A stretch of 48,382 bases of DNA from a virus. A model generated the notes under the pieces. The model was not told where the DNA came from and searched no databases. It saw only the letters and a program-made list of their open reading frames with translations. The position numbers and the translations under genes are program-made. The DNA lies in the IMG/VR virus record IMGVR_UViG_3300013131_000067, positions 1-48,382 of that record; one strand, 5' to 3'. Below are positions 8,466 to 47,360 of this stretch, one piece after another. Each line of letters starts with the position of its first letter. Position 1 is the first letter of the stretch.

Positions 8466-9227
8466 ATGTCAATCACAACTTTATCTGATTATGGAAGTAT
8501 ATTTCAATCAAAGCTTATGAAGTTTTTAATAGAAGATAAGATGTTTTTCTTCAAGCTTCATCCCGTTCTTAGACCGGAATACTTTTCAGATAAAAAGTAT
8601 CGAGATTTACTAAAAGTTATTATAAAGCATTTTGAAACATATTCTGATTTACCTACATACGATGTTTTATCAATATACGCAAATAAAATTGTTGATATTG
8701 ATAGAAAAGATGCGATGATTCGTCTTATTAACGAAGTAAAAATAGAGAGTGGAAATCCGGAGTTTTTTCTAGATGAAGCATTAAAGTTTTGTAAAAGAAA
8801 TGAAATAAAGGAAACTCTAATTGATTCTGTTGATTTTCTTCAAAATGAAGATTACGAAAAAATAGAAGATAGATTAATGTCTTTAATGAAAAAGATCAAT
8901 ATAGATATCAGCGGTCATAATTATTGGGAAAACTTTGATGCTAGAAGCGCCATGACAAGATTTAACATTATTCCCACCGGTTGGGATCCTATTGATGCAA
9001 TAACAAACGGCGGATTGGGAGCTGGAGAGTTGGGAGTTATTGCCGGTGGCCCAGGATTCGGAAAATGTACTTCTAAAAACACCAAAATAGATATTGAAAT
9101 AGAGAAAATTATTATAGAAGATGATAATGGTATGGTGAATGAATATTATCCGTGGGATAATATTAAGCTTCCAAACGGAAATATAAAACTCGCAAAAGAT
9201 ATTGTTAATGAAGATTTTTCACTTTAG
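8466..9227 (+). CDS. Replicative DNA helicase, N-terminal half plus N-intein
   Basis: Residues 1-200 are the N-terminal part of a DnaB/T4 gp41-type helicase: helical N-domain, linker, then TGWDPIDAITNGGLGAGELG and Walker A GGPGFGK. The frame then passes directly into an intein N-half at Cys201 (CTSKNTKIDI...) and stops 53 residues later at TAG. The break falls after the Walker A lysine, so this half cannot be active alone. The partner half is at 10166-11383. Extein Trps are TGG. AGGAG lies 8 nt before the start. Confidence 0.9.
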   Translation: MSITTLSDYGSIFQSKLMKFLIEDKMFFFKLHPVLRPEYFSDKKYRDLLKVIIKHFETYSDLPTYDVLSIYANKIVDIDRKDAMIRLINEVKIESGNPEFFLDEALKFCKRNEIKETLIDSVDFLQNEDYEKIEDRLMSLMKKINIDISGHNYWENFDARSAMTRFNIIPTGWDPIDAITNGGLGAGELGVIAGGPGFGKCTSKNTKIDIEIEKIIIEDDNGMVNEYYPWDNIKLPNGNIKLAKDIVNEDFSL

Positions 9228-9285
9228 TTTTTTCAAAACCCGATCTTTCAAGTATATATTATAATAAAAGAAAGGGAATAAATAT

Positions 9286-10203
9286 ATGAAGAAAAAATCT
9301 TTGTTTGAAATTTGATGCGATAAATATGGAAATGATTTAGCAATAATAAAATGAAACGAGTATATAGAGAAACAAAAAAAATGTAATACAAAAAATACAT
9401 ATATTGAAAAATATGGTGAAGAGATTGGTGAAAAAAAATGAAATGAATTTATAGAAAAAAGTAAACAAACAGAATTAAACATGATAAAAAGATATGGCGA
9501 AGAAACAGGTAAAAAAAAATGAAACGAATATATCCAAAAACATAAGAAAAATCAAACTCTGGAGGGATTAATTTATCATCACGGAAAAGAAAAAGGTGAA
9601 TTAATTTACAACAATAGGGTAAAAAAAATAAAAGAAGCGAATCGTGGTGAATCAAATCCCATGTCGATTCAATCAATTTCAAAACGAATGAATATAACAA
9701 TGGAGGAAGCTAGAAAAAATACGCCATGTTATAATAGAAAAAAAGAAAAACATCCGCTTTATAATAAAAAACTGACGGATGAAACAAAGAAAAAGATATC
9801 TCTCGGGGTTCAGCGATCAAAGCCGTGAGGAAAAAAATGTAAAAAACAACAAAGTAAATGTTACGAAATGGTAAAAAAATTTTTTCCAAACACTATTTGG
9901 GAATGTAGTATAAAAACAGAGACAAAATATAGAAATGTGGATATGTTCATACCAGATTATAATCTAATAATCGAATATTATGGCGATTATTGACATATGA
10001 ACCCTTCACGATTCAATGAAAACGATTATAATAATCATTTACATTTAACCGCAAAAGAAAAATGAGCATATGATGAAAAAAGATTAAATGAATTGCGTCA
10101 AGAAGGTTATGATGTATTTATAATATGAGAATCCGATCTAAAGGAAATTAGCGAGGAGAAACTTTATGAAAGTATTAAAGGTTTTAAGACACGAAAAGAT
10201 TAA
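9286..10203 (+). CDS. Vsr-like homing endonuclease within the split helicase
   Basis: A 305-aa protein between the two helicase halves. The first ~110 residues contain four tandem ~25-aa units of the pattern YGxExGxxKWNEYIxK, a feature of free-standing homing endonucleases. A linker with NPLYNKKLTDETKKKIS (NUMOD3-like) follows. The C-terminal third has DMFIPDYNLIIEYYGDYWH, AKEKWAYDEKRLNEL and DVFIIWESDL, matching the Vsr-like endonuclease fold of the EDxHD type. Eight of nine Trps are TGA. The final 38 nt overlap the start of the C-terminal helicase half. It probably cuts an unoccupied helicase gene to spread the cassette. Confidence 0.85.
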
Positions 10204-11383
10204 TATAAAACAACTTTTTGATAAATTAAATATACGCTTTATAGATGATGAAAAAAATGATGTTATTGTTCAAAACGAATATAATATAAAAGTTTTAACG
10301 ACAATGGGTTATAAACAAATAGAGGCGATGAGACTAGTAAAACCAGAGATCCCAGTCACCTTATATTTAAAAAATAAAAAAACATTAAAAGCATCAAAAG
10401 AACATTTCGTAAAAACGTTAAATAGGAGTTGAGTAAAAATAAAAGATTTGATAAATAATGATCAAATAGAAACAAAAGATGGATTTAGTGCATTTGAAAA
10501 AATAAAAGAACATAAGAAACAAGAGGAGTTATACGATTTTCAGGTAAAAGAAATACATTCATATTTTACAAACGATATTAACAGCCATAATTCTCATTCC
10601 TTAGTCAGTATAGGATGTAATGCAGCTAGAATTGGAAAGAATGTTCTTTACATTTCACTGGAATTATATAGTAATGTTGTTGAAACCAGGTTTGATTCAA
10701 ATTTTACAAACATTGAAAATGATAAAATTAGATTTCACAAAGAGATTGTGAAAAAGAGATTAGAATCATTAAAAAATGAAGGAAAATTTGGTGATATTTT
10801 CGTAAAGTATTTTCCAACAGGTTCAGTAACTGTTCAGCAACTAAAAGCATATGTAAATCAATTAAAAGCAATGGGTTTTAATCCAGATCTTATACTTTTA
10901 GATTATGCCGATATTGTAAAGCCGGGAAGGTTTTATAAGGATGCTCATCGTCTTGAACAAAAAGGTATATATGAAGATCTTCGCGGATGGGCTGGTGAAA
11001 TTGAGAAACCAATTTGAACGGCATCTCAGGCTGGAAAACAAGTTATTGAAAAAGATTGGATTGGCATTGAAGATTTATCTGATTCGTTTGGCAAAGCAAT
11101 GGTTGCGGATCTTATCTTTGGTTTAACAAGAAAGATGGATCAAAGAATAGATAATTCTGGAAAGTTATTTGTTGCAAAAAGTCGAGTCGGAAAAGATGGT
11201 TTCATATTCCCTATCACGATGGATACTGCTTTATCTCTTATTGAGGTTCATGAAACGGATCATGATCAAACAAAAGAAATTCTGAGCGGTACAAGAAAAA
11301 ACGAATCCGGTAGAGTTTCAATGTCAAGTCATAAGAAATCCAAAATGATTGATGATTTAAGAAGCGAATTCGGTATATCATAA
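10166..11383 (+). CDS. C-intein plus replicative DNA helicase C-terminal half
   Basis: Residues 1-142 are the intein C-part. It contains block B (LKASKEHFVKT then WVKIKDLINNDQIET), block F (LYDFQVKEIHSYFTND) and block G ending SHN. The extein resumes at Ser143 with SHSLVSIGCNAARIGKNVLY, so splicing rebuilds GPGFGK-S and a 463-aa helicase (T4 gp41 is 475). Downstream are LDLILLDYAD (Walker B), PIWTASQAG (sensor region, W as TGA) and MDQRIDNSGKLFVAKSRVGKDG. GAGGAG lies 9 nt before the ATG. The C-intein is much longer than usual because the split lies before block B. Confidence 0.9.
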
Positions 11384-12498: not shown

Positions 12499-13128
12499 AT
12501 GAAGAATAATCATGAAACTTATCTAAAGATTGCAAGGTTATTTGCAGATAATTCGACATGTTGTTCTAAGAAAACTGGTTGTGTTATTGTTAGAGAAGGA
12601 AGAATTATTAGCACAGGTTATAATGGCGTTCCATCCGGTCAAATGCATTGTGATAAATATTGGTTAACGGGTGAATTTATTGATCAAACGATTCAAGATT
12701 TACAATTAGAGGTTAATGCGAGAGTGCGCTTCGGCATATCTCCGGAATTAATTATAAAAGAAAGTAATGGTCTTTTCGAACATAATGATGACATTATTGG
12801 TATAAAATGTAATAGAAAAAAGCTAATTGAGCACTTAAATCAAAAAGGTTTTAAAAAAATTTTTGATAGAGAGGAACATCATAAGTGGTCTTTAGAAAAC
12901 GAATTACACGCTGAACAAAATGCCTTAATGGCCTGTTGTAAAAACGGTATCGCTACAAATGGCGCTGATATGTATATGACAATCAGTCCATGTAAAACAT
13001 GCGCACTACTTATAGTTCAAGCCGGTATTAAAAGTGTTTTTTTTGAAGTAGAATATGATCTTTCTGCTGGTTTTGAAATTTTAAAGAAAAATAATATTGG
13101 ATATCATAACATAAATTTAAATTCATAA
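12499..13128 (+). CDS. dCMP deaminase
   Basis: Zinc-dependent deoxycytidylate deaminase converting dCMP to dUMP. The zinc site is H137-A-E139 (HAEQNAL) and PC-x2-C (C165 and C168 in SPCKTCA). The N-terminal substrate region has CSKKTGCVIV and STGYNGVPSG. A ~70-residue insert between residues 55 and 130 is larger than in the ~150-190-aa minimal family. Both Trps are TGG. It starts 2 nt after the previous gene. In this genome it could feed ThyX with dUMP while competing with the dCMP-directed ThyA-like enzyme. Confidence 0.9.
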   Translation: MKNNHETYLKIARLFADNSTCCSKKTGCVIVREGRIISTGYNGVPSGQMHCDKYWLTGEFIDQTIQDLQLEVNARVRFGISPELIIKESNGLFEHNDDIIGIKCNRKKLIEHLNQKGFKKIFDREEHHKWSLENELHAEQNALMACCKNGIATNGADMYMTISPCKTCALLIVQAGIKSVFFEVEYDLSAGFEILKKNNIGYHNINLNS

Positions 13129-13187
13129 AATCGAAAAGATCAAGAAATAAAGTTTGTATATAATTGAAAACAAATAAAGAGGTTTTG

Positions 13188-16100
13188 ATGTTAAAATGTA
13201 ATTATGTAAATCTTCATACGCATAGTCACTATTCAATGTTAGATGGAATATCTAAATATGAAAATTATTTAGAATTATTAAAAAATACGCCAAATCAAAT
13301 TAATAGTTTTGCTATGACGGAACATGGTTCTTTAATGGGAACAATTTCTTATTTAAATGCATGTAAAGAATATGGCGCAAAACCAATCGTCGGCGTTGAA
13401 ATATATTTAACGACCGACGATGAACTTATGAAATTTAAAAAAGACAATAAAAAAGTTCCTAAACGATATCATCTAATACTATTAGCTAAAAATAAAAACG
13501 GTTATAAACAATTAGTTCAAATGAACAATTATTGTGTTAAAGAAAAAAATGTCTATATTTCTAGAATACAAAGATCATATATTTTACATACTCCATCTAT
13601 TCTTAAGAAATTTATTAAAAACGATATAATTTGTTCGGCGGCCTGCGTGGGTTCATATATTTTTCAGCCTTATAATTTTAATAACGATCTTGATACTTCT
13701 CTTTTAAGATATAAAGAAATAAAAGATATCTTTAAAGATGATTTCTATTTTGAATTTCAGATGTTAGATATTGAATCTCAAAGAAGAATGAATGGTCTTC
13801 AAATTAAATTGATGGATAAATTCCCAAATCAAAAGGCGATTGTAACATCCGATTCTCATTATGCAAAAAAAGGTTTGGGTGAATTGCGTGAAATTACAAT
13901 GGCAATGAATTGGAAGATGACTCTTAATCAATTCAAGATTGTTACTTCTAAAAATGATAACACCGAAGAGCAAGTAAATATTCATTTCAGAACAAATGAT
14001 GAACTTTATGAAGAATGGTCGCTGAATCATTCGGATATTATTTCGGAAGAACAATTTAGAAAAGCCTGCCAAAACACTATTGACATTTATGAATCTATCA
14101 AATCTTTTTCTTTGGATAAAACACAGGATCTTGATACGGTAAAAGCTTATTTCGATAAAGATCCAGACGAAATTGTTAAAGAAAGATGTATTGCTGGATT
14201 GAAAGAAAAGATTGGCAATATTGATAATATTCAAGTTTATGTTGATCAACTTAAGAATGAATTAAAAATCGTTAAAGAAAAGAATTTTGCTTCTTATTTC
14301 TTAGCGGTTATGACAATTCTTGATAATCTAAAAAAGAATAATCAATATATAGGAATCGGTAGAGGTTCCGCCAGTTCATTCCTTATCAATTATCTTCTTG
14401 GCATTACAAATGTTGATCCCATTGAACATAAATTAATGTCAGAAAGGTTCTTGGATAGCTCTCGAAAGGATTATCCGGATATCGATACGGATGTTGAAGA
14501 TAGAGGGATAATGTATCAAATCTTTCAAGAAACATTTCCAAATCATGATGTTGTTCTTTTATCAAATAGAAATACCCTTTCCGTAAAAGCACTTATTAAA
14601 GCCGTTTGGAAAACTCTTGACATCGATATTCCTATTAAAAATGATGCTTTAGATTCCGCTGATAAGATATCTAAATATATTGACGATAATTATAACGTAA
14701 TTACTCTTAAATTAGAAGAATTTCTTAAGGATAAATATTTCAATGAAATTTTGACGGAATATCAATCAAAGAATACGAAAATAGATTTATTGCAAGTTCT
14801 AAATGAATTATATGAAAATCTTTCCGCAATTAGTGTTCATGCTGGCGGTGTTGTTATTATCGATAAAAAAGAAAATATTGTACCGTATGTTCCTCTTCTT
14901 GGAAATCAAATGTCTCATTATGCAACCGGTTTTTGTGAATCAGCCAGTTATAAAGAACTTGAACAGATTGGTCATATTAAATTTGATATGTTAGGTCTTG
15001 GAAATTTAAGATGTCTTCATAAAACGGTAGAACAAATCAGTAAAGATTTTAATATAAGTAGTGAAAAAGTATATTCAAAAATTGATCCAAAGAATTTAGA
15101 TTTAAACATACCGGAGATTTTTGAGGGATTTCAGCGTGGATTTACCGAAGGTATTTTCCAATTTTCTTCCGAAGGCATGACAAGTATTCTAAAAAGACTT
15201 AAAGCCGATTCTATTCACGAATTAACAATGGTTAATGCTCTCTATAGGCCGGGGCCTTTAGGATCCTCTCTTCATGAGATCGTTATTAAGAATAAATTTG
15301 CAAACGAATCCGAAAATATATTTTCGGATAAAATGTTAGAAAAAATTGGTTTTATTCTTGATGAAACATATTCCGTCCCGCTTTATGAAGAACAGATTAT
15401 GAAAATCGGTAGAGAGATTGGTAAATTCGATGCATCTCAGCTTAATCGTTTTAGAAAATTTCTTAAAGAAGGTCAAAAAATTATTGTTGATAATAAGAAA
15501 CTTTATAATAAACTTCGTAAAGAATTTTATGATCAATTTATGGAAAATGGAGTTGTTCAAGAATTAGATAGAGATGAATTAGAAAAACTTTGGTTGCTTA
15601 TGGTTAAATTTAGTCTTTATTCATTCAATCAGAGCCATAGTTTGAACTATTCTCTACTGGCCTATCAAACGATGTACATGTCGGTAAAGTTTCCCGGATA
15701 TTGGTATACAGAAGTTCTTAACGAAAATCCAGGTAAATTAGAAAACGTTATGCAAGAAATTAAGAATCGATCTAAGCTCGATAATCTTAAGATTAAGTTC
15801 TCTCCTCCACAATTGGGTAATTTCTTTACAGATTATACCTTTGTTCCAGAGGAAAAAGGAAATCCTTATGATGGTACGATTTATATTGGTCTTAGACATA
15901 TCAAAGGATTTGGTGAAAAAGCAATGCCTCAAATGGAACAATTAGTTGGACAATCATTTGAAAACATTGATGATTTCTTGAATCATATCAAAGAAAATAA
16001 GTTAAATGCTATCAATAAGACAGCTCTTCTTGCAATGGCTAATATTGGAATGTTTTCTGAATTGGGTCTTACGAGAGAAAAAGCGAGAGCAAAGATCTTA

Positions 16101-16598
16101 ATTGAAAAGGATAATTCTTTTAGAGTTGAAGAAGAATCAACGGGTAAAAGAAAGAAATGGCGTCAAATGAAGATTTTAGAGGCCATGAAGAAAGATAAAA
16201 TTGAAAATGATGTCGGTAAAAAGTTTTTCTTTATTGCAGAAAAAGAAGCAATCGGAGTTCCTTTTACGGATAATCCTGTATCGTTTTTGAAAGACAAGAT
16301 TAGAGCGATTCAATGTAAATATTTAAATAAATATTGTGATGGTGGAATGATTTCTTCCATTAAGAAAAAGAAAACAAAAAACGGTAAAACATATTATCTT
16401 CTTTTTGTAGAAAGCGTTCTTAAAAAAAGCAATATTATGATTTTTGCTTGGGATAAAGTAATTTCTCAAATGGGGGAAGAATTCTTTACATCTCTTCAAG
16501 AATATGATCCCATAGTATTTGTTGGAAAACCTAACGAATGGAAAAACGGAACATTTAATTTAGATAATATTATTAAGGTAGAATTAGAAGATGAATAA
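13188..16598 (+). CDS. dnaE: DNA polymerase III alpha subunit (C family)
   Basis: C-family replicative polymerase of 1136 aa, the usual DnaE length. The PHP domain begins at once (VNLHTHSHYSMLDG) and has SDSHYA. The palm has GIGRGSASS near residue 391 and the catalytic PDIDTD near 430-435. NALYRPGPL and VPLYEEQIMKIG follow in the fingers. An OB-like C-terminal region is present; no 3' exonuclease insert was seen. The ATG at 13188 is chosen because AAAGAGG lies 5 nt upstream; a TTG 24 nt earlier has no such site. All Trps are TGG. Confidence 0.93.
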   Translation: MLKCNYVNLHTHSHYSMLDGISKYENYLELLKNTPNQINSFAMTEHGSLMGTISYLNACKEYGAKPIVGVEIYLTTDDELMKFKKDNKKVPKRYHLILLAKNKNGYKQLVQMNNYCVKEKNVYISRIQRSYILHTPSILKKFIKNDIICSAACVGSYIFQPYNFNNDLDTSLLRYKEIKDIFKDDFYFEFQMLDIESQRRMNGLQIKLMDKFPNQKAIVTSDSHYAKKGLGELREITMAMNWKMTLNQFKIVTSKNDNTEEQVNIHFRTNDELYEEWSLNHSDIISEEQFRKACQNTIDIYESIKSFSLDKTQDLDTVKAYFDKDPDEIVKERCIAGLKEKIGNIDNIQVYVDQLKNELKIVKEKNFASYFLAVMTILDNLKKNNQYIGIGRGSASSFLINYLLGITNVDPIEHKLMSERFLDSSRKDYPDIDTDVEDRGIMYQIFQETFPNHDVVLLSNRNTLSVKALIKAVWKTLDIDIPIKNDALDSADKISKYIDDNYNVITLKLEEFLKDKYFNEILTEYQSKNTKIDLLQVLNELYENLSAISVHAGGVVIIDKKENIVPYVPLLGNQMSHYATGFCESASYKELEQIGHIKFDMLGLGNLRCLHKTVEQISKDFNISSEKVYSKIDPKNLDLNIPEIFEGFQRGFTEGIFQFSSEGMTSILKRLKADSIHELTMVNALYRPGPLGSSLHEIVIKNKFANESENIFSDKMLEKIGFILDETYSVPLYEEQIMKIGREIGKFDASQLNRFRKFLKEGQKIIVDNKKLYNKLRKEFYDQFMENGVVQELDRDELEKLWLLMVKFSLYSFNQSHSLNYSLLAYQTMYMSVKFPGYWYTEVLNENPGKLENVMQEIKNRSKLDNLKIKFSPPQLGNFFTDYTFVPEEKGNPYDGTIYIGLRHIKGFGEKAMPQMEQLVGQSFENIDDFLNHIKENKLNAINKTALLAMANIGMFSELGLTREKARAKILIEKDNSFRVEEESTGKRKKWRQMKILEAMKKDKIENDVGKKFFFIAEKEAIGVPFTDNPVSFLKDKIRAIQCKYLNKYCDGGMISSIKKKKTKNGKTYYLLFVESVLKKSNIMIFAWDKVISQMGEEFFTSLQEYDPIVFVGKPNEWKNGTFNLDNIIKVELEDE

Positions 16599-16773
16599 TA
16601 AACCAAAACCGTACGCCTGAGTTTGTAGAACTTGTAATAAGTTTGATTTCGCGGATACGGAAGAACAATTAGCATATCCAGAACATACTTCACATAGAGG
16701 TTTTGATATAGGAATATGTTCTGGAAAGATGATACCACTTTATACTTTAGAACAAATAAAAAAGGAGAAATAA
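16591..16773 (+). CDS. Small zinc-ribbon-like protein (60 aa)
   Basis: ATG overlaps the dnaE stop by 8 nt and the TAA abuts the next ATG, so it is translationally coupled on both sides. C-x2-C near residue 12 (WVCRTCNKF, W as TGA) and a later GIC around residue 43 with an intervening His-rich loop could bind one zinc ion. Function unknown. Confidence 0.65.
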
Positions 16774-17346
16774 ATGTCAGATAACACTCTATTCAAAAAG
16801 TTTGAAAACGAACTAAATGAAATTACGAACAAAACCGGAAATAAGGATGCACTTCAAACAATATTTGAAATGCAATGTGAACTTATGAAAAGATATGGTC
16901 ATGAACCAACTTGGCTTAAAACACCATTTATTGAACAGGAAGAAATGCGGGTTATGACAGAAAATGGAGTTGTTACTTTTCCAAAAGAATATATTGCTAA
17001 TCAAAAAGAATTAAGAACTAAGTTACTTCTTGATATGGTTCACGCTATGGATGATGAAGTATCTGAATTTAGAGGTGAATTGCCTTGGAAGCATTGGAAA
17101 AAGTATAAGCCAGAAGATATGTGGTATAATAATGAAAACGTAAAATTGGCTGCGGGTTTTGAACTAATAGATATTCTTCATTTTATGATGGAATCATTTA
17201 TTCTTCTTGGTTTTGATTGGGAAGATATTAAGAAATTATATCTAGTGAAGAATATTGAAAATTTTCATCGTCAAGATGTAGGATATGATAATTCATATAA
17301 AGAAGATGATAAGTGTAATGGATGCGACAATTGTAATTGTAAATAA
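16774..17346 (+). CDS. Dimeric dUTPase / all-alpha NTP pyrophosphatase
   Basis: All-alpha NTP-PPase of 190 aa. Diagnostic segments are IFEMQCELMKRYG (helix 1), DMVHAMDDEVSEFRGELPWK (metal-binding acidic helix) and KHWK, GFELIDILHFMMES (second acidic helix) and VKNIENFHRQDVGYD. This set matches dimeric dUTPases, a group that also includes T4 gp56-type dCTPase/dUTPases. It would hydrolyse dUTP, and perhaps dCTP, to monophosphates, feeding dCMP to the ThyA-like enzyme at 24527. A Cys-rich tail (CNGCDNCNCK) is unusual and could bind metal. All Trps are TGG. Confidence 0.85.
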   Translation: MSDNTLFKKFENELNEITNKTGNKDALQTIFEMQCELMKRYGHEPTWLKTPFIEQEEMRVMTENGVVTFPKEYIANQKELRTKLLLDMVHAMDDEVSEFRGELPWKHWKKYKPEDMWYNNENVKLAAGFELIDILHFMMESFILLGFDWEDIKKLYLVKNIENFHRQDVGYDNSYKEDDKCNGCDNCNCK

Positions 17347-17360
17347 ATAGAAAGAATATA

Positions 17361-18956
17361 ATGAGTTATAATTTTCATAAACATTTTCCATTTGAAAAAG
17401 AACGCGAAATTCAAACTCGCGTTCTTGATCATTTATCTGAAACATGGGAAGATAATAATATTAAGCTATTAAATTTGCCTACAGGAGTTGGTAAGAGTTG
17501 CATAGCAATCGCAGTGTCCCATGCATTAAAGGGAAAGACGATTATATCTACTCCTCAAAAGATTTTGCAAGATCAATATATGAAAGACTTTGGAAACAAT
17601 CTTCTTCTTAATATTAGAGAAATGAAAGGAAGAAATAACTTTCAATGTATTACGGATCCAAATTCTACATGTGCGGATGGACCAGGGGCCATTAAACCGG
17701 AATATTGTCCGGATTGTCCTTATATAGATGCAAAGAAAGCAGCGGAGAAAGCTAAAGTAGTTATTATGAACTTTGCTTATTATATGACAACTTCTTTTAA
17801 TCATTCCTTTAATGATAGACCCACTCTAATTATTGATGAAGCTCACTCCCTTCCAGAACATATTATTGCTTTTGCTGAATTTAGAATTACAGATATTGCT
17901 CTTCAGCGTCTATTTGATAATAAGGAAATTAGAGTTCCGGAGCTTGATAGTCTTAAAAGATATGAAGAATGGATGAAAGATGTTTATGATACTCTTTCTC
18001 TAAAGTGTAAGAAAATTGAAAAGCTATTTAAAGATTTTGATATTGATGCTAATGATAAGAATACGGATAATAAAATTATTAGAGAGATGATTAGAGATTT
18101 TGAGAGATATAATTCTTTCATGTCTAAGATTAATCGATATTTTGAAAGTAAAGATTATGTAGAATGGGTTTGGTCATTTGAGGAAGTATATTCCAAAAAG
18201 AATAAGGAAAATGCTTTCATTTTGAAGCCTTTGACCGTAGATAGATTTGCAAAGGAATTAATATTTGATAGGCATGAAAAGATTATCTTAATGTCAGCTA
18301 CTCTTCTAGAAAAGAAACAATTCTGCAGCAGCTTGGGAATTTCTCAAGATGAAGCGGAATGGATTGAAGCAGAAAGTCCTTTCCCTACTTCTAATCATAA
18401 GTTTTTAATGCATCCAATTGGAAGTTTAAACGCAAAAGAAATTAATGATACTCTTCCAAAACTAATTCCAGCTCTTAAGCTTATTCTTGCTTCTCATGAA
18501 GGGCAAAAAGGCATAATACATTGTGGATCTTTCAAAATTGCTAATTATATTAGGGATAACCTAAAAGACAAGCGATTATTAATTCAAGAATCCGGTCAAG
18601 CAAATAGTGAAATTTATACTCTTCATAAAGAATTGAAACATGATACCGTTATTGTATCGCCGTCAATGGCGGAAGGTATTGATTTGATTGGCGACTTAGG
18701 ACAATTCCAGATTATAGTTAAATTGCCATTTATGAATTTGGGAGATAAATGGACGCGCATTAGAGCTGAACGGTTTCCCGATTGGTATCTTTTTAAATGT
18801 GTTTTACAATTTGTTCAAGCGATGGGAAGAACACAAAGAACGGCGAAAGATAAAGTAACAACTTATGTATTAGATCAATCATTTAATTTCTTTATGAAAG
18901 TAAAAGGAAAGAATATGTTACCGACACATATAAAGAAAATTTGCGGAATCAAATAA
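17361..18956 (+). CDS. DinG/XPD-like superfamily 2 helicase
   Basis: ATP-dependent DNA helicase of 531 aa. Walker A LPTGVGKS is at about residues 39-46 and the DEAH box (IIDEAHSLPEH) near 158. Four cysteines between ~96 and 118 (QC, TC, YCPDCPY) are positioned like the 4Fe-4S cluster of XPD/DinG. The C-terminal domain has LMSATL, GIIHCGSFKIANYI and the QAMGRTQR arginine-finger motif VI. All Trps are TGG. DinG-type helicases unwind D-loops, R-loops and G4 structures. A 10-bp hairpin lies in codons 13-22. Confidence 0.88.
   Translation: MSYNFHKHFPFEKEREIQTRVLDHLSETWEDNNIKLLNLPTGVGKSCIAIAVSHALKGKTIISTPQKILQDQYMKDFGNNLLLNIREMKGRNNFQCITDPNSTCADGPGAIKPEYCPDCPYIDAKKAAEKAKVVIMNFAYYMTTSFNHSFNDRPTLIIDEAHSLPEHIIAFAEFRITDIALQRLFDNKEIRVPELDSLKRYEEWMKDVYDTLSLKCKKIEKLFKDFDIDANDKNTDNKIIREMIRDFERYNSFMSKINRYFESKDYVEWVWSFEEVYSKKNKENAFILKPLTVDRFAKELIFDRHEKIILMSATLLEKKQFCSSLGISQDEAEWIEAESPFPTSNHKFLMHPIGSLNAKEINDTLPKLIPALKLILASHEGQKGIIHCGSFKIANYIRDNLKDKRLLIQESGQANSEIYTLHKELKHDTVIVSPSMAEGIDLIGDLGQFQIIVKLPFMNLGDKWTRIRAERFPDWYLFKCVLQFVQAMGRTQRTAKDKVTTYVLDQSFNFFMKVKGKNMLPTHIKKICGIK
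17398..17426 (+). other. Intragenic hairpin at the start of the DinG-like gene
   Basis: Perfect 10-bp stem (AAGAACGCGA with TCGCGTTCTT) and a 9-nt loop, unusually GC-rich for this genome, 38 nt after the start codon. A similar early hairpin exists in uvsX. It may slow early translation or act as a protein-binding site. Confidence 0.5.
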
Positions 18957-24526: not shown

Positions 24527-25423
24527 ATGAAAATTATTTCTGGACATAGTTTTTCTTATGTTTATAAAAAACTGTTAGATAGTTTGCTTTATGAATTTGA
24601 GTATGAAAATTCTGCTCGAAATAAGCAAACAAGAGAGATTCTTGATGTTATTCTTACAATAGAGAATCCACTTTCTAACATATTCTCGTGTTCGGCTAGA
24701 GAATTCCCTTATAATTATTTGGCTGGAGAATTGATATGATACTTTATGGGTAGACGTGATGTACATTTTATTTCTCGCTATTCAAAATTTTGACAGAAAT
24801 TAGCTGATAGTGATGGAAATCTAAATTCTGCTTATGGCTATCTTTTATTTCAAAAACCAATAAGTGATAAACATACACAAACGCAATGAATGTGAGCATT
24901 GGATAGTTTGATACGCGATAAAGATACCAGACAAGCAATAATAAGATATAATAATAATGATCATCAATATGAAGGTAATAAAGATTTCGTATGTACTCTA
25001 ATTTCTCATTTCTTTATTCGAGATAATGAACTTCATATGACAACACAAATGAGGTCCTCGGACATAGTTAGAGGTTTAACATTTGATTTCCCATTTTTCT
25101 CATTATTACAACAACAAATGAGAAATCATTTACTTCCAACATATCCTGAACTTAAAATTGGATACAATCGTCTTATTTTAGGTTCTAGTCATATTTATTC
25201 CGAGCATTATAATCTCGCAAAAGAAATGTTAGATGCCGGTATATTTGATTCGAATATACCAGAGTTATCATCAAATCTTATTGATAATAACGGAAATCCT
25301 AGTGATGTTTTAAAAGAAATTGAAAAAAGAGTTGAGCAAAATCGTAAGATGACAACACAACTAATTGATCAATTACATAATTGAATATACAATAACGCAT
25401 TTCAATCAAATAAAACTAAATAA
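24527..25423 (+). CDS. ThyA-family enzyme, predicted dCMP hydroxymethylase
   Basis: 298 aa. ThyA-fold features: HFISRYSKFW and SAYGYLLF, TRQAIIRYN (phosphate arginines from the partner subunit), catalytic Cys156, RSSD at 176-179 exactly 20 residues after the Cys as in E. coli ThyA, and SSHIYS (His/Tyr pair). At the position of E. coli Asn177, which selects dUMP, this protein has Asp187 (GLTFD). That Asn-to-Asp change is the hallmark of dCMP-directed members such as T4 dCMP hydroxymethylase. ThyX is also encoded here, leaving this enzyme free for cytosine modification. Several Trps are TGA. Methylation rather than hydroxymethylation is possible. Confidence 0.75.
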
Positions 25424-25439: not shown

Positions 25440-26690
25440 ATGAATATCTCCTCAAAGATATTATCCGACATTATAATCTACATGAAATATGCTAAATATA
25501 TTCCACAATTCAAAAGAAGAGAAACATGAGATGAAATAGTTACAAGAAATATGGATATGCATATTAAAAAGTTTCCGCAATTAGAAGAAAGAATTAGAAA
25601 ACATTATCAACTTGTTTATGATAAAAAAGTTTTGCCTAGTATGAGAAGTATGCAATTTGCTGGAAAACCGATAGAAATAAGTCCTGCTAGAATTTATAAT
25701 TGTTCATATCTTCCAATAGATGATTATAGAGCATTTTCAGAAATTATGCATTTATTATTATCGGGTGTCGGTTGCGGGCTTTCTGTTCAAAAACATCATG
25801 TAGAACAACTCCCGGAAATTAGAAAACCAAACCCAAATAGACATAAAAGATTTCTTATTGGTGACAGTATAGAAGGATGAGCCGATGCCATTAAAACGTT
25901 AATGAAATCTTATTTCAACGTTAATGGCACCTCCTCTATTATTTTTGATTATTCTGATATCAGACCAAAGGGTGCAAGACTTATTACATCCGGCGGAAAG
26001 GCTCCCGGTCCGCAACCATTAAAAGATTGCATTTATAATATAACAAAAGTATTAGATCAAAAAGAAGATGGAGATAAATTGTCTCCATTAGAGGTGCATG
26101 ATATAATTTGTTTTATAGCTGACGCTGTTTTAAGTGGTGGAATTAGAAGAGCCGCTTTAATTAGCTTTTTTTCGATGAGTGATAATGAAATGTTAGCTTG
26201 CAAGGCTGGAAATTGATGGGAAAAAAATCCCCAAAGAGGAAGAGCAAATAATTCCGTAGTTATTCTTAGACATCGTATTGAAGAAGAAGATTTCAATAAA
26301 CTCTGAGAAAGAATTAGATTAAGTGGTTGCGGCGAGCCGGGAATTATGTTTACTAATGATAAAGAAGTTCTTGGGAATCCTTGTTTGGCTGGAGATACGA
26401 AGGTAGCTACGGAAATTGGCGATATTTCTATAGAAGAATTAGTATCATCGTATGAACAAGAAAAAGAATTACCGAAGATCTTGTCATATAATAAACAAAC
26501 CGGAGAATTAGAATTTTGCGAAATGTCTTGGGGGGCGCTTACAAGAGAACAGGCTGATGTTGTAGAATTAGAATTTGAAGATGGAGAAAATATAACACTA
26601 ACTCCTGATCATGAAGTTTATACAAAAAATAGAGGATATGTAAAAGCATGTAATTTAACCGAAGACGATGAAATTATTTCTATCAAATAA
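25440..26690 (+). CDS. Class II ribonucleotide reductase, N-terminal half plus N-intein
   Basis: Residues 1-314 form the N-terminal part of an adenosylcobalamin-dependent reductase: LPSMRSMQFAG, IYNCSYLPIDD (active-site Cys), GVGCGLSVQKHHVEQLP, DSIEGWADAIK (W as TGA), FDYSDIRPKGARL and CGEPGIMF. It then reads GNP and enters an intein at Cys315 (CLAGDTKVATEIGD). The 102-aa N-intein includes block B with TPDHEVYTKNRGY and ends at TAA. It is close in character to the NrdJ-1 family of split inteins. The partner half is at 27585-28640. Confidence 0.9.
25887..25928 (+). other. Long imperfect hairpin inside the reductase gene
   Basis: Stems GCCATTAA/TTAATGGC (8 bp), CGTT/AACG (4 bp) and GAAAT/ATTTC (5 bp) stack with small one-sided bulges around a CTT loop, giving 17 pairs. 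It lies in ordinary coding sequence; function is unknown. Confidence 0.35.
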
Positions 26691-26700
26691 TTTGGAAAAA

Positions 26701-26749
26701 TTTAGATATTATTCGTATATAAATAATACACGGATTACTAATATCTAAA
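26701..26749 (+). other. Inverted repeat before the reductase-linked endonuclease
   Basis: Perfect 11-bp arms (TTTAGATATTA and TAATATCTAAA) flank 27 nt in the gap between the N-intein stop and the endonuclease gene. The right arm ends one base before the GGAG of the endonuclease, so folding would hide its ribosome binding site. Confidence 0.5.
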
Positions 26750-26763
26750 AGGAGAAATAATAA

Positions 26764-27621
26764 ATGATAGAAATGAAATCCACGATAGATGAAATGGCAT
26801 TAATGGATTTTTTTTACAAACAATTTCAATGACAAAAACAAAAAATAGACATAATAATATGACCAGAATACGAATATAGATTTGATTTGTTTATGAAACA
26901 AAACAAAATACGCAATCCCAATAATGGAATAAAAAAGCGTTTTTTACAACAGATGATAAAAACAGATTATTATGATAATTGATGTAAACTAAAAACTATT
27001 TGCGAAACATTATACCTTGAAGGATATGGTTTTAAATTATTAGCTAGAAAATTTGATGTTAGTTATACCGAAATTAGAACCATATTCAATAATTTAGAGA
27101 TAGAAAAACGACACGGTTTATGCGTTGTGACTAATAAACTCAAAGAAGTTAGAAGTATAAATCTAAAAGAAGCATATAATAAAAGAGAAGGATTTTTCAA
27201 AACTTTTGAAAAAAAAACTAATAAAACTTCTAGGGGAGTGCAAGGATATTATTATAATCAAGGAATGAATAAATTAGTTTGATTGAGAAGTACTTACGAA
27301 TTCATATATGCTAAATGATTAGACAAACAAAAAATAATTTGAGACGTTGAAGTAAAGACTTTTCGACTAAAATCTACTTATTATAGACCGGACTTTTTCT
27401 TGTTTGATGACATCAACAATCTTACTATAAAAAAGATTGTTGAAATAAAAGGATATTGACAAAGAGATGTAAAAAAACTCAGAGAATTACAGCGTGAAAA
27501 TCCTCTAAATTGTGAAGTTTGCATTATATTTGATGTAAAACCTTATATAGAAGAAAATTCTAATTATTCAAAGGAACTAAAAGAATGAAAGAAAAGCAGA
27601 ATATTACTATTAGAAAAATAA
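26764..27621 (+). CDS. PD-(D/E)xK homing endonuclease-like protein in the split reductase
   Basis: 285 aa, between the two reductase halves. A helix-turn-helix-like segment (GFKLLARKFDVSYTEIRTIF) lies around residues 82-105. The C-terminal third has WLRSTYEFIYAKWLD, TYYRPDFFLF and KKIVEIKGYW, which fits a PD...ExK nuclease core. All eight Trps are TGA, unlike the exteins. The last 37 nt overlap the C-terminal reductase half. It differs from the Vsr-like enzyme in the helicase cassette, so the two insertions have separate origins. Confidence 0.78.
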
Positions 27622-28640
27622 AAAAAATTAGTGTTAGAAAAAACAGAGATGTATTTGATATTACGGTTCTCAGAAATCATAACTTTTTTGCTAATAAAAC
27701 GTTGGTATCAAATTGTAACGAAGTCTCGCTTAAGCCATTTCAATTTTGTAATTTGTGTGAAATAAACGCGTCAGACATTGAAAGTCAAGAAGATTTAAAT
27801 GAAAGAGTGGAAGCTGCCGCATTTATTGGAACACTCCAAGCATCTTATACAAACTTTCATTATTTAAGAGATGTTTGGCAAAAAACAACTGAGCGGGATG
27901 CTCTTCTTGGAATAGGAATGACAGGATTAGGTAGTGGTAAATTTTATGATGTTAATTTAGAGGAAGCCGTTCAATTAGCCAAAAAGATAAATAAAGAATT
28001 AGCCAAAGAGATTGGAATAAATAAAGCATCTAGACTTACTGTAATAAAACCTTCGGGTACCGCTAGTGTTCTTCTGGGAACAAGTTCTGGAATTCACGCG
28101 TGGCACAGTGATTATTATATTAGAAGAGTAAGGGTCGGAAAAAACGAAGCGATTTATAATTATCTTTCCAAACAACATCCAGAACTTATAGAAGATGAGT
28201 ATTTCAAACCAGAAACAGATGCAGTTATTGCAGTGCCGCAAAAAGCTCCGAAGAATTCCATTCTAAGGCATGAAAGCGCCTTAGAACTATTAAATAGAAT
28301 AAAGTATATCACCAAACATTGGATTATTCCTGGACATATCAAGGGAGAAAATCACAATAATGTTTCTGCCACCGTTTCTATTCGAGATCATGAATGGGAT
28401 GTAGTTGGAAGATGAATGTGAGATAATAGGAATTATTATAATGGTCTTTCAGTCCTTCCTTACGATGGAGGAACTTATGTTCAAGCTCCGTTTGAAGATT
28501 GCTCAAAAGAAGTATATGAAGAAATGATAAGTCATTTATCGGATATAGATTTATCAAAGATTGTAGAAGAAGAAGATATGACATCCGCAAGAGAAGAAGT
28601 AGCTTGCGCTGGTGGTTTATGTACAATAGATAGGATATAA
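27585..28640 (+). CDS. C-intein plus class II ribonucleotide reductase C-terminal half
   Basis: Residues 1-43 are a C-intein with block F (RDVFDITVLRNHNFFAN) and block G LVSN, then extein Cys44. Splicing gives GNP-CNEVSLKPFQFCNL, the conserved NPC(x)E loop of class II reductases, and a 622-aa enzyme. The rest has LLGIGMTGLGSG, KPSGTASVLLGTSSGIHAWH, GENHNNVSATVSI and a C-terminal redox pair CAGGLC. The penultimate intein residue is Ser rather than the usual His. TGA-coded Trp occurs in VGRWMWDN. Expression depends on its own start inside the endonuclease gene. Confidence 0.9.
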
Positions 28641-28641
28641 T

Positions 28642-29250
28642 GTGGAAATTAAATTATTAGATCACACAAAATTAAGCAACGCCGTTATAGCGGGAAGAAC
28701 AGCTTATCAATCTTTTCATAAAGGTGGAAATTATGATGGTGCAACTGATGATATAACGGATGTAGATAAAGAATTTCTAAATTGATTATTCAATAAACAA
28801 AAACATGAATCTGTACTTGAGATGGTAACATACGTTTTCAAAATGGATGATTTCTCAAGAGCTGTTTTGCAACAATGATCAAGAAATCGTATTATGAGTC
28901 AAACCGTTATGTCAACTAGATATATTAAGCCAAAGAAATTTAAGTTATACAAAACGGATAATGAAGAACTTAATGAATATATTCAAAATTATTTTGATGG
29001 ACTAATAGAAAAATTTGGTCATTTATCAAACGATGTCATAAAATACGGATACCCAGAAGCTGTTTTAACAAAAAACGTTGTTACTTTCAATTTTAGAGAA
29101 CTGAATCATATTCTAACATTGAGATTATCAAATCATGCATTTAAAGAGTATCAAGAATTGGCAAGAATGTTGTTAAATAATATACCTGAAAAACATAAGT
29201 TTTTATTTGAAGAGAGTTTTGGGGAATTTATTGAGAAAGAAGAGTGTTAA
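28642..29250 (+). CDS. thyX: Flavin-dependent thymidylate synthase ThyX
   Basis: Makes dTMP from dUMP using FAD and methylene-tetrahydrofolate. The ThyX signature RHRx7S appears as RNRIMSQTVMS (R81 to S91) with His replaced by Asn. Other family segments are KHESVLEMV, FSRAVLQQW and LNHILTLRLSNHAFKEYQELA. 202 aa is typical. The start is GTG, since the ATG overlapping the previous stop is out of frame and closes quickly. Two Trps are TGA. Its presence beside a ThyA-like gene implies different jobs for the two. Confidence 0.85.
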
Positions 29251-43666: not shown

Positions 43667-44740
43667 ATGAAGATCAATTCTAACTTGTATAAGAAGATTC
43701 TGGAAGAAATTGAGTTGGGATACATCTCAGTCCAGTCTCATCCCACTCTTCCTATTTTCATTTATAACTATACTCAAAAGACTCAATTTGAATGGCGTTG
43801 GAATGAGGCTACTTCTATTTGTAGAGGTCTTATTCTCGATTCAAAACTAAACATCGTTGCAAGACCTTTTGAAAAGTTCTTTACTCTTGAACAGTGTAAG
43901 GATATGAACATTGAGATTCCTTACGATAAGTCATATTCTATCTTTCCTAAGATGGATGGTTCTTTAGGAATCTTTTGGTCTTATCAGAATGAATATGGTA
44001 TTGCTACTAGGGGTTCATTTACTTCTGATCAAGCAATTGAAGGAACTAAGATTCTATATGAAACGTTTTCTTATGGTAAATTAGAAGCAATGAGAGAACT
44101 TTCGCGAAATGTTACGTTTTTGTTTGAAATCATTTATCCGGAAAATAGGATTGTTGTTGATTATAAGGGTAAGCGCGATTTGGTGTTTTTAACGGCAATT
44201 GATATTATCAACGGTTATGATGACGGCGATGCTTATTTTATGTTTTTTAAGAATAGAGTTAATAGAATTCAGTTTAATGGTTCTTTTGATGACCTTAAGA
44301 ATCTGAATAACATCAATGAAGAAGGTTTTGTAATTCTTTTTGACATCGGTTTCAGAATGAAGATTAAGTTTGAAGAGTATCTTCGTCTTCATAAGCTATA
44401 TTGTGGTTTGTCTAATAAAATGATTTGGGAAATGCTTTCAGAAGGAAGGACAAAAGATGAAATTCTAAATGATATGCCAGATGAATTCATGAATTGGGCA
44501 AAGTCTATAATTGAAAAGTTAGATTCACAATTCTTTACTCATCAAACGGCAATTTTGAATTTATTTAACTTATTCAAGATGTATAGTGAAGATAGAAAGA
44601 TGTTTGCGGAAAAGGTTATGTGTTGTAGAAAGGATTATCATTCAATGTTGTTTTCGGCGTTGGATGGAAAGAATTTTGATAAGCAAATTTGGCGTCTTTT
44701 GAAGCCGAAAGAAGTCGAAAAGTTTAATTCCGTTTCTTAA
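43667..44740 (+). CDS. T4 Rnl1-like RNA ligase
   Basis: 357 aa nucleotidyltransferase that joins RNA ends. Motif I is KMDGS with the AMP-accepting Lys95 (T4 Rnl1 uses Lys99). CRGLILDSKLNIVARPFEKFF precedes it, ATRGSF follows, then FLFEIIYPENRIVVDY (motif IIIa region) and VILFDIGFRMKIKFEEYLRL (motifs IV/V: FRMKIKF). The C-terminal ~100 residues are helical. All Trps are TGG. It probably repairs tRNAs cut by host anticodon nucleases; the kinase-phosphatase partner was not found here. Confidence 0.87.
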   Translation: MKINSNLYKKILEEIELGYISVQSHPTLPIFIYNYTQKTQFEWRWNEATSICRGLILDSKLNIVARPFEKFFTLEQCKDMNIEIPYDKSYSIFPKMDGSLGIFWSYQNEYGIATRGSFTSDQAIEGTKILYETFSYGKLEAMRELSRNVTFLFEIIYPENRIVVDYKGKRDLVFLTAIDIINGYDDGDAYFMFFKNRVNRIQFNGSFDDLKNLNNINEEGFVILFDIGFRMKIKFEEYLRLHKLYCGLSNKMIWEMLSEGRTKDEILNDMPDEFMNWAKSIIEKLDSQFFTHQTAILNLFNLFKMYSEDRKMFAEKVMCCRKDYHSMLFSALDGKNFDKQIWRLLKPKEVEKFNSVS

Positions 44741-46841: not shown

Positions 46842-47360
46842 ATGAAGATTAGAGTTCCTTATGAATTTTTTGAAACAAAAGGTATAGGAGAAAGTGCCTT
46901 AGAACATCATGCAGGAAGTTACCATTTTGCGTTACATAGTGCCGGTATTGCAAACTTCAATATAATGACATATAGTTCAACAATTCCAAAAACAGCAAAA
47001 CTAGTAAACTATAATGATATTATAGATAATTTACCTTTTGGTTCGGAATTAACATGTATTATGTCGATATGTAATGGCGAAGAAAGTGAATTGTTATCAG
47101 CGGGTATTATTTACGGCTGGTTATTTGATGAAAATAATGAAAAAATAGGTGGTTTAGCTTGCGAAGTTTCAGGGTGTTATCCATTAGATGAACTTGAATA
47201 TAGATTAGAAGCCGTTATTCGAGAACTACACATAGGAACATATTCTGAATATGAACTTAAGGATCTTAGAACCATAACTAGTAGCCACACTCCACAAAAA
47301 AGATACGGAACAGCTTTAGCTGCCTTATGTTTTGTTAGTTTTAATAAAGATACTGAATAA
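46842..47360 (+). CDS. Pyruvoyl-dependent arginine decarboxylase homologue
   Basis: 172 aa, close to the ~165 aa of Methanocaldococcus PvlArgDC. FALHSAGIANFNIMTYSSTI matches the region around the self-cleavage site: Ser45-Ser46, whose second Ser becomes the pyruvoyl cofactor. Asn40 matches the conserved NxN asparagine. Glu108 (GGLACEVSG) aligns with the catalytic Glu109. The ending, SSHTPQKRYGTALAALCFVS, fits the EHT...G.A.AA end. The family makes agmatine and CO2 from arginine. GGAG precedes the ATG by 10 nt. Trp is TGG. Polyamine supply or pH control during infection is inferred. Confidence 0.83.
   Translation: MKIRVPYEFFETKGIGESALEHHAGSYHFALHSAGIANFNIMTYSSTIPKTAKLVNYNDIIDNLPFGSELTCIMSICNGEESELLSAGIIYGWLFDENNEKIGGLACEVSGCYPLDELEYRLEAVIRELHIGTYSEYELKDLRTITSSHTPQKRYGTALAALCFVSFNKDTE

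What the first reader, a model, noticed from the sequence alone, without database searches (positions are those of the whole stretch)
25440..28640. Class II ribonucleotide reductase fractured by a second split intein
Exteins join as GNP-CNEVSL, restoring the NPC-E active loop of a 622-aa enzyme. The 102 + 43 aa intein resembles NrdJ-1 in TPDHEVYTKNRGY and HNFFAN, but the +1 residue is Cys and the insertion appears one residue upstream of the NrdJ-1 site as I recall it. Two essential enzymes in one genome thus depend on protein trans-splicing.
Basis: partly seen in the sequence, partly recalled or inferred. Interest (0 to 1): 0.78.

Follow-up and report, generated by a model that had tools for sequence, protein, structure and literature searches.

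The report
Split-intein-fractured phage ribonucleotide reductase gene
A phage that reads the stop codon TGA as tryptophan carries its DNA-building enzyme (ribonucleotide reductase) as two genes, each ending in half of a self-splicing intein, with a DNA-cutting gene between them; the layout is known from marine viruses, but here the splice falls directly before the enzyme's catalytic cysteine.

Summary
With TGA read as Trp (relatives carry Trp in 191 of 192 cells at the six nrdJ TGA codons), 25440-28640 encodes a B12-dependent (class II) ribonucleotide reductase in two pieces: N-extein 314 aa + IntN 102 aa, and IntC 43 aa + C-extein 308 aa. In intact relatives the two exteins abut with no gap at exactly this junction (31 of 32 junctions examined). 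The intein is kin of NrdJ-1 (8ubs, E=9e-25), but it splices NP|C, one residue before the NrdJ-1 site (NPC|S), so the +1 nucleophile is the enzyme's own radical cysteine. This is the 'fractured gene' arrangement of Dassa et al. 2009. All 56 IMG/VR relatives of that endonuclease lie at the same RNR loop. Among 74 distinct inteins of the lineage, the NPC| register occurs only where the next residue is Ser or Cys (27/27); every loop with another residue (43/43) splices before the Cys. The DnaB helicase gene is fractured likewise. Splicing is inferred, not shown. New member of a known kind.

The parts
25440..26381 (+). nrdJ N-extein, 314 aa, class II (adenosylcobalamin-dependent) ribonucleoside-triphosphate reductase, N half (C88 = predicted redox-pair Cys)
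   Evidence: phrog_367 E=1e-65; TIGR02505 E=1e-38; 1l1l
26382..26687 (+). IntN, 102 aa, CLAGDT...EIISIK; C1 = TGT at 26382; block B TPDH
   Evidence: (TIGR01445 48.7 bits)
26700..26762 (+). hairpin (UUUAGAUAUUA...UAAUAUCUAAA) between IntN stop and the endonuclease start, immediately upstream of its AGGAG; role unknown
   Evidence: z = -3.1, 1 of 200 shuffles as stable
26764..27621 (+). 285-aa putative homing endonuclease; helical N-terminal region plus PD-(D/E)xK nuclease domain (E179, E196, D210, E227-x-K229); 8 TGA(Trp), 0 TGG codons
   Evidence: active-site residues invariant in 35 sequences; pLDDT 90; TnsA Z 8.5
27570..27587 (+). Shine-Dalgarno (AAAGGA) and ATG of IntC embedded in the endonuclease's KELKEW codons; 37-nt overlap of the two genes
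   Evidence: same device in most loci listed
27585..27713 (+). IntC, 43 aa, ends ...HNFFANKTLVSN (penultimate Ser instead of the usual His)
   Evidence: (TIGR01443)
27714..28637 (+). nrdJ C-extein, 308 aa; +1 Cys (TGT 27714) = catalytic radical Cys C315 of the spliced enzyme; E317, C326, C612/C617
   Evidence: (NPCNEVSLKPFQFC aligned to NPCGEISLANGEPC of 1l1l)
8466..9065 (+). second fractured gene: DnaB-like helicase N-extein, 200 aa, ending in Walker A GPGFGK
9066..9224 (+). DnaB IntN, 53 aa (CTSKNT...NEDFSL)
9286..10203 (+). 305-aa putative homing endonuclease in the DnaB gap: NUMOD3, Vsr-like DYWH region
   Evidence: PF07460; TIGR00632 vsr, E=0.003, weak
10166..10591 (+). DnaB IntC, 142 aa, ends DINSHN
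10592..11380 (+). DnaB C-extein, 263 aa, +1 Ser completes Walker A GxGK-S
   Evidence: (Mel-JY01 match starts at residue 143)

Best explanation
A phage nrdJ gene invaded at its active-site loop (NPC-x-E) by a split-intein / homing-endonuclease cassette. The two halves are made as separate proteins (NrdJN-IntN and IntC-NrdJC); the intein halves associate and splice in trans, joining ...LGNP to CNEVSL... into a 622-aa B12-dependent RNR. Because the intein sits before the catalytic cysteine, that cysteine is first the +1 acceptor of the splicing reaction and afterwards the radical-bearing residue of the enzyme; neither half alone should be active. The free-standing TnsA-like PD-(D/E)xK protein encoded between the halves most likely cuts intein-less nrd genes at this loop so that the cassette is copied in by repair. 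Shown: gene anatomy, intein motifs, exact junction, intact relatives, kinship of intein and endonuclease with about 100 other loci, predicted endonuclease fold and conserved active site. Inferred: splicing, cutting and homing.
For: Exact extein continuity with intact relatives (31 of 32 junctions with 0-nt gap) and equal conservation of both exteins (typically about 65% each in the closest loci). Intein kinship to the solved, fast-splicing NrdJ-1 (E=9e-25) with C1, TxxH, block F, terminal Asn and +1 Cys kept. RNR catalytic residues in place against 1l1l. Endonuclease relatives found by their own sequence all lie in RNR genes at this loop, nearly all between split intein halves, which fits a site-specific homing role. 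Catalytic residues invariant in 35 sequences, model pLDDT 90, TnsA Z 8.5/8.3 and I-Bth0305I 5.0. Intein positions obey splicing chemistry: NPC| only with x = Ser/Cys (27/27 distinct inteins), NP|/NL| for all 43 loops with non-nucleophilic x. Conserved Shine-Dalgarno + ATG of IntC inside the endonuclease reading frame.
Against: No experiment. Penultimate residue is Ser where nearly all relatives have His (VSN|C; only L152 in the curated set, also L133 and L151, share it), which could slow Asn cyclisation. Loop residue x is Asn, not seen in the other NrdJ loops here, though the class I NrdA cases (NLCNEI) have it. The endonuclease's target was not determined.
Confidence: 0.92

Rival explanations
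1. Genes-in-pieces RNR: the halves assemble non-covalently and work without splicing, as for Aeromonas phage Aeh1 NrdA, and the intein halves are only dimerisation tags or relics.
For: Aeh1 NrdA is interrupted by a mobE endonuclease and still functional without a self-splicing intron (PMC3653736).
Against: All intein splicing motifs are kept; the register obeys the +1 nucleophile requirement in all 74 distinct inteins, which a mere tag would not need; the split falls within the catalytic NPC-x-E loop, where a chain break should abolish activity; related inteins occur as uninterrupted cis inteins.
Confidence: 0.05
2. A decaying insertion: the endonuclease or intein is inactive and the RNR is lost or replaced by the host enzyme.
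For: Penultimate His lost (VSN); endonuclease stubs and endonuclease-free split or cis inteins exist elsewhere in the family.
Against: All three frames are open under one code; active-site residues of RNR, intein and endonuclease are kept; both exteins are equally conserved.
Confidence: 0.04
3. Assembly or code artefact: a continuous nrdJ broken by frameshifts or stops.
For: Under table 11 the frames are broken by TGA.
Against: TGA=W is supported at all six nrdJ positions; the junction falls exactly at intein boundaries; the same three-part layout recurs in dozens of contigs.
Confidence: 0.01

Closest known systems
NrdJ-1 split intein (Dassa et al. 2009, GOS metagenome; PDB 8ubs)
   Same: Homologous intein, class II RNR host, active-site NPC loop, similar split (about 100/40); NrdJ-1 groups with the NPC|S clade of this family.
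   Different: NrdJ-1 splices NPC|SEI with an obligate +1 Ser (PMC13123727); the window splices NP|CNE with +1 = catalytic Cys and lies outside the NPC|S clade (100/99 in the 37-intein tree).
Fractured genes with free-standing endonucleases (Dassa et al. 2009, doi 10.1093/nar/gkp095)
   Same: Conserved enzyme gene split by a split intein with an endonuclease ORF in the gap. That survey is cited for 2 nrdJ and 7 nrdA cases in GOS data (PMC3653736); the details of the arrangement are from memory, as the paper is not held.
   Different: Window: TGA-recoded phage, two fractured genes in one 48-kb record; the nrdJ endonuclease lacks the EDxHD signature. The nrdJ endonucleases of the original paper could not be compared.
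TnsA and other PD-(D/E)xK nucleases; I-Bth0305I (EDxHD homing endonuclease)
   Same: Nuclease domain fold (TnsA Z 8.5, 126 residues, 4.0 A; I-Bth0305I catalytic domain Z 5.0) and E...PD...E-x-K active site.
   Different: 12% identity to TnsA and no transposition genes seen; no D-x-H signature; no Pfam or NCBIfam family reaches its cut-off for the window protein.
Class II RNR, L. leichmannii RTPR (1l1l)
   Same: Catalytic Cys-x-Glu loop, redox-pair Cys and C-terminal CxxxxC.
   Different: Gene is in two pieces; loop is NPCNE rather than NPCGE.

Membership tests
Split intein, NrdJ-1-like | N- and C-splicing blocks on two separate ORFs fused to the two exteins | tested here: met
Split intein, NrdJ-1-like | Catalytic residues C1, TxxH, terminal Asn, +1 C/S/T | tested here: met
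Split intein, NrdJ-1-like | Penultimate His (common, not universal in inteins) | tested here: not met
   VSN: Ser at this position; shared by L152, L133, L151, so it does not exclude an intein
Split intein, NrdJ-1-like | Trans-splicing activity | not testable with these tools
   needs co-expression of the two halves
NrdJ-1 allele (same insertion site) | Insertion NPC|S with +1 Ser | tested here: not met
   NP|C with +1 Cys; 0-gap intact relatives; intein tree
Fractured gene arrangement (Dassa 2009) | Free-standing endonuclease ORF between the intein halves of one enzyme gene | tested here: met
   (nuclease fold and motif; activity not tested)
PD-(D/E)xK nuclease, TnsA-like | Fold and E...D...E-x-K active site | tested here: met
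   Foldseek alone not significant
EDxHD (Vsr-like) homing endonuclease, nrdJ gap protein | E...D-x-H...D signature | tested here: not met
   no His among invariant or nearly invariant columns; PDF...E-x-K instead
Class II RNR (RTPR) | Catalytic Cys-x-Glu loop, redox Cys pair, C-terminal Cys pair | tested here: met

The most novel reading that the evidence does not exclude
One lineage of split inteins with its TnsA-like endonuclease has adapted to the active-site loop of RNR by sliding its splice register by one codon: where the residue after the catalytic Cys can act as nucleophile (Ser/Cys) it can splice after the Cys; elsewhere it splices before it and uses the radical Cys itself as +1, so that no RNR with this loop is barred to it. 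In the window the loop residue is Asn where intact relatives have Cys, and the register is NP| although its closest endonuclease relatives use NPC|C. The endonuclease also carries the ribosome-binding site and start codon of IntC inside its own reading frame, tying the three genes together.
Probability: 0.5. Interest if true: 0.62.

Novelty: new member of a known kind. Interest (0 to 1): 0.45.

Why it matters
It shows the fractured-gene split intein of RNR to be a large viral lineage (about 100 contigs, 74 distinct inteins seen here, splicing before or after the active-site Cys) rather than a few metagenomic curiosities, supplies many +1-Cys split inteins related to the fast NrdJ-1 for protein engineering, and gives a natural case in which an enzyme's radical cysteine doubles as the splicing nucleophile. 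RNRs with a double-Cys loop that carry either register make it testable how an intein shifts its insertion point by one residue.

Tried and rejected
Standard code (table 11): rejected, conserved Trp positions are TGA. Intact nrdJ elsewhere in the record: none. tRNAs or Rfam families in the record: none found. EDxHD class for the nrdJ endonuclease: signature absent. Pattern scans of viral contigs with the DnaB pieces found no relatives; tblastn against phages gave the junction instead. Cellular relatives: no endonuclease homologue in genome contigs; 32 weak intein matches in genomes all lie in other contexts, none at the RNR loop; these scans are pattern-based and can miss. Foldseek against PDB gave no match better than E=0.07 for the endonuclease, so the TnsA-like assignment rests on the VIA-align Z and the conserved motif. 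A C-extein tree was spoiled by broken frames and long branches and is not used. The place of the window's intein in the 75-intein tree is unresolved; its endonuclease is placed (96/84). Phylogenetically independent test of register against residue x: only 3 independent pairs on supported branches, those that differ go the expected way, too few for significance. NPC|C as one clade is not rejected (p 0.11); all NPC rows as one clade is rejected (p 5e-5). Dassa et al. 2009 is not in the library. Whether the NP|C allele already has an InBase RIR1 name could not be settled; a continuous match across the IntC/C-extein junction to an archaeal RNR model (NF006207) hints that cis inteins end at this place in archaea.

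Full report
Observation. The window is one whole IMG/VR virus record of 48,382 bases. Under the standard code the region is a patchwork of short frames, but the breaks are TGA codons at conserved tryptophans: the six nrdJ TGA codons align with Trp in 191 of 192 cells of relatives, and the long reading frames examined all end in TAA or TAG. Read with TGA=Trp, 25440-26690 is a 314-aa N-extein fused to a 102-aa IntN and 27585-28640 is a 43-aa IntC fused to a 308-aa C-extein.

Junction. A scan of viral contigs with the C half gave 33 related loci. In 31 of the 32 loci where both exteins could be placed, the N-extein match ends and the C-extein match begins with no gap, at ...NP|CCEI...; the other (L031) carries an insertion with an HNH-like reading frame a few codons downstream. 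The splice point NP|C is therefore fixed to the residue. Both exteins are similarly conserved. The spliced protein aligns with L. leichmannii RTPR 1l1l across the NPC-x-E loop and the C-terminal cysteines, and holds C88, C315 (radical), E317, C326, C612 and C617 at the expected spacings (assignment of roles from established knowledge of RTPR).

Intein. NCBIfam intein_Nterm starts exactly at C1 and intein_Cterm covers the last IntC residues and the +1 residue, both above their cut-offs. The nearest solved intein is NrdJ-1 (8ubs, E=8.6e-25). NrdJ-1 has native exteins NPC and SEI (PMC13123727), so the window's intein is one residue upstream and uses the catalytic cysteine as +1 nucleophile.

What was missed. 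The 0.9-kb gap is not empty: 26764-27621 is a 285-aa reading frame with 8 TGA(Trp) and no TGG codons. No Pfam family matches it and no NCBIfam model reaches its cut-off, but its alignment with 34 homologues keeps E179, E196, PD210F and E227-x-K229 invariant. The AlphaFold2 model (pLDDT 90) matches TnsA (Z 8.5, 126 residues, 4.0 A) and other PD-(D/E)xK nucleases over residues 155-285, with the I-Bth0305I homing endonuclease domain at Z 5.0. Foldseek alone gave nothing significant. I read it as a homing endonuclease of the PD-(D/E)xK type.

Family. Scanning viral contigs with the endonuclease alignment alone returned 56 loci, and every one lies in an RNR gene at the same loop, almost all between an IntN and an IntC. 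The intein alignment added cis mini-inteins without endonuclease, split inteins with endonuclease stubs or none, and class I NrdA cases at NL|CNEI. This is the arrangement known as 'fractured genes' (Dassa et al. 2009; not held here, recalled; cited for 2 nrdJ and 7 nrdA cases in GOS by PMC3653736). No relative at the RNR loop was found in the cellular genomes searched.

Register. Of 74 distinct inteins, 27 splice after the catalytic Cys and all of these have Ser or Cys as the next residue; the 43 loops whose next residue is Gly, Ala, Val, Asn or Met all splice before it; four loops with Ser or Cys also splice before it. That is what splicing chemistry demands and supports that these inteins are selected to splice. 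In a tree of 37 inteins NrdJ-1 groups with the NPC|S inteins, apart from the window (100/99); in the larger tree the window's place is unresolved. The endonuclease tree puts the window next to NPC|C loci (96/84), and one origin of the NPC register is rejected (AU p 5e-5). So the splice point appears to have moved by one codon more than once; the double-Cys loop NPCC of the window's RNR clade, where both registers occur (L038 type and L134 type), would allow such a slide without changing the product. In the window the second Cys is Asn, which only the NP| register tolerates. The order of events is inference, and independent contrasts are too few for a test.

Expression. The IntC start codon lies inside the endonuclease gene: the conserved KELKEW codons read AAGGA...GAATG in another frame, giving IntC a Shine-Dalgarno sequence and ATG; this recurs in most loci. 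A hairpin (z -3.1) precedes the endonuclease's own ribosome-binding site.

Second fractured gene. The DnaB-like helicase at 8466-11383 is split at Walker A, GPGFGK|S, with IntN 53 aa and IntC 142 aa and a NUMOD3/Vsr-like endonuclease between. In Microcystis phage Mel-JY01 the helicase is one annotated gene in which the two matches abut at 57436/57437, and its nrdJ relative is likewise one gene, annotated as hypothetical. Thus two replication enzymes of this phage are predicted to depend on trans-splicing; that they are essential is inference.

Verdict. Observation confirmed, interpretation supported with additions. Known kind, well-marked new member; the register behaviour is the most interesting part.

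Noticed in passing
window 8466-11383: DnaB helicase fractured gene with an unusual split point: IntN only 53 aa, IntC 142 aa, unlike the usual ~100/40 split; the endonuclease in the gap is NUMOD3/Vsr-like.
   Followed up: partly
window, whole record: Use of TGA for Trp is uneven: many ORFs use mainly or only TGA, whereas 12499-18956 (dCMP deaminase, DNA pol III alpha, dUTPase, helicase) and the RNA ligase 43667-44740 use TGG only. No tRNA gene was found in the record.
   Followed up: partly
window 24527-25423 and 28642-29250: A thymidylate-synthase-family protein (PF00303) and ThyX (PF02511) flank the fractured nrdJ; the first may be a base-modifying enzyme.
   Followed up: no
window 46842-47360: Pyruvoyl-dependent arginine decarboxylase (PF01862, E=3e-29) encoded by the phage.
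   Followed up: no
L031:4228-5000: A relative's nrdJ is interrupted shortly after the NPC loop by an insertion with an HNH-like ORF, resembling a mobile intron at nearly the same site.
   Followed up: no
L133, L151, L152: Inteins ending VSN|C (penultimate Ser, as in the window), with CMEI following.
   Followed up: no
L050/L117, L072, L085, L092, L095, L131: Several RNR genes carry further intein-like stretches at other places, e.g. at (T/S)VKP(S/E/A)G|C downstream of the NPC loop.
   Followed up: no
window 26700-26762: Stable hairpin between the IntN stop and the endonuclease start, next to its ribosome-binding site.
   Followed up: partly
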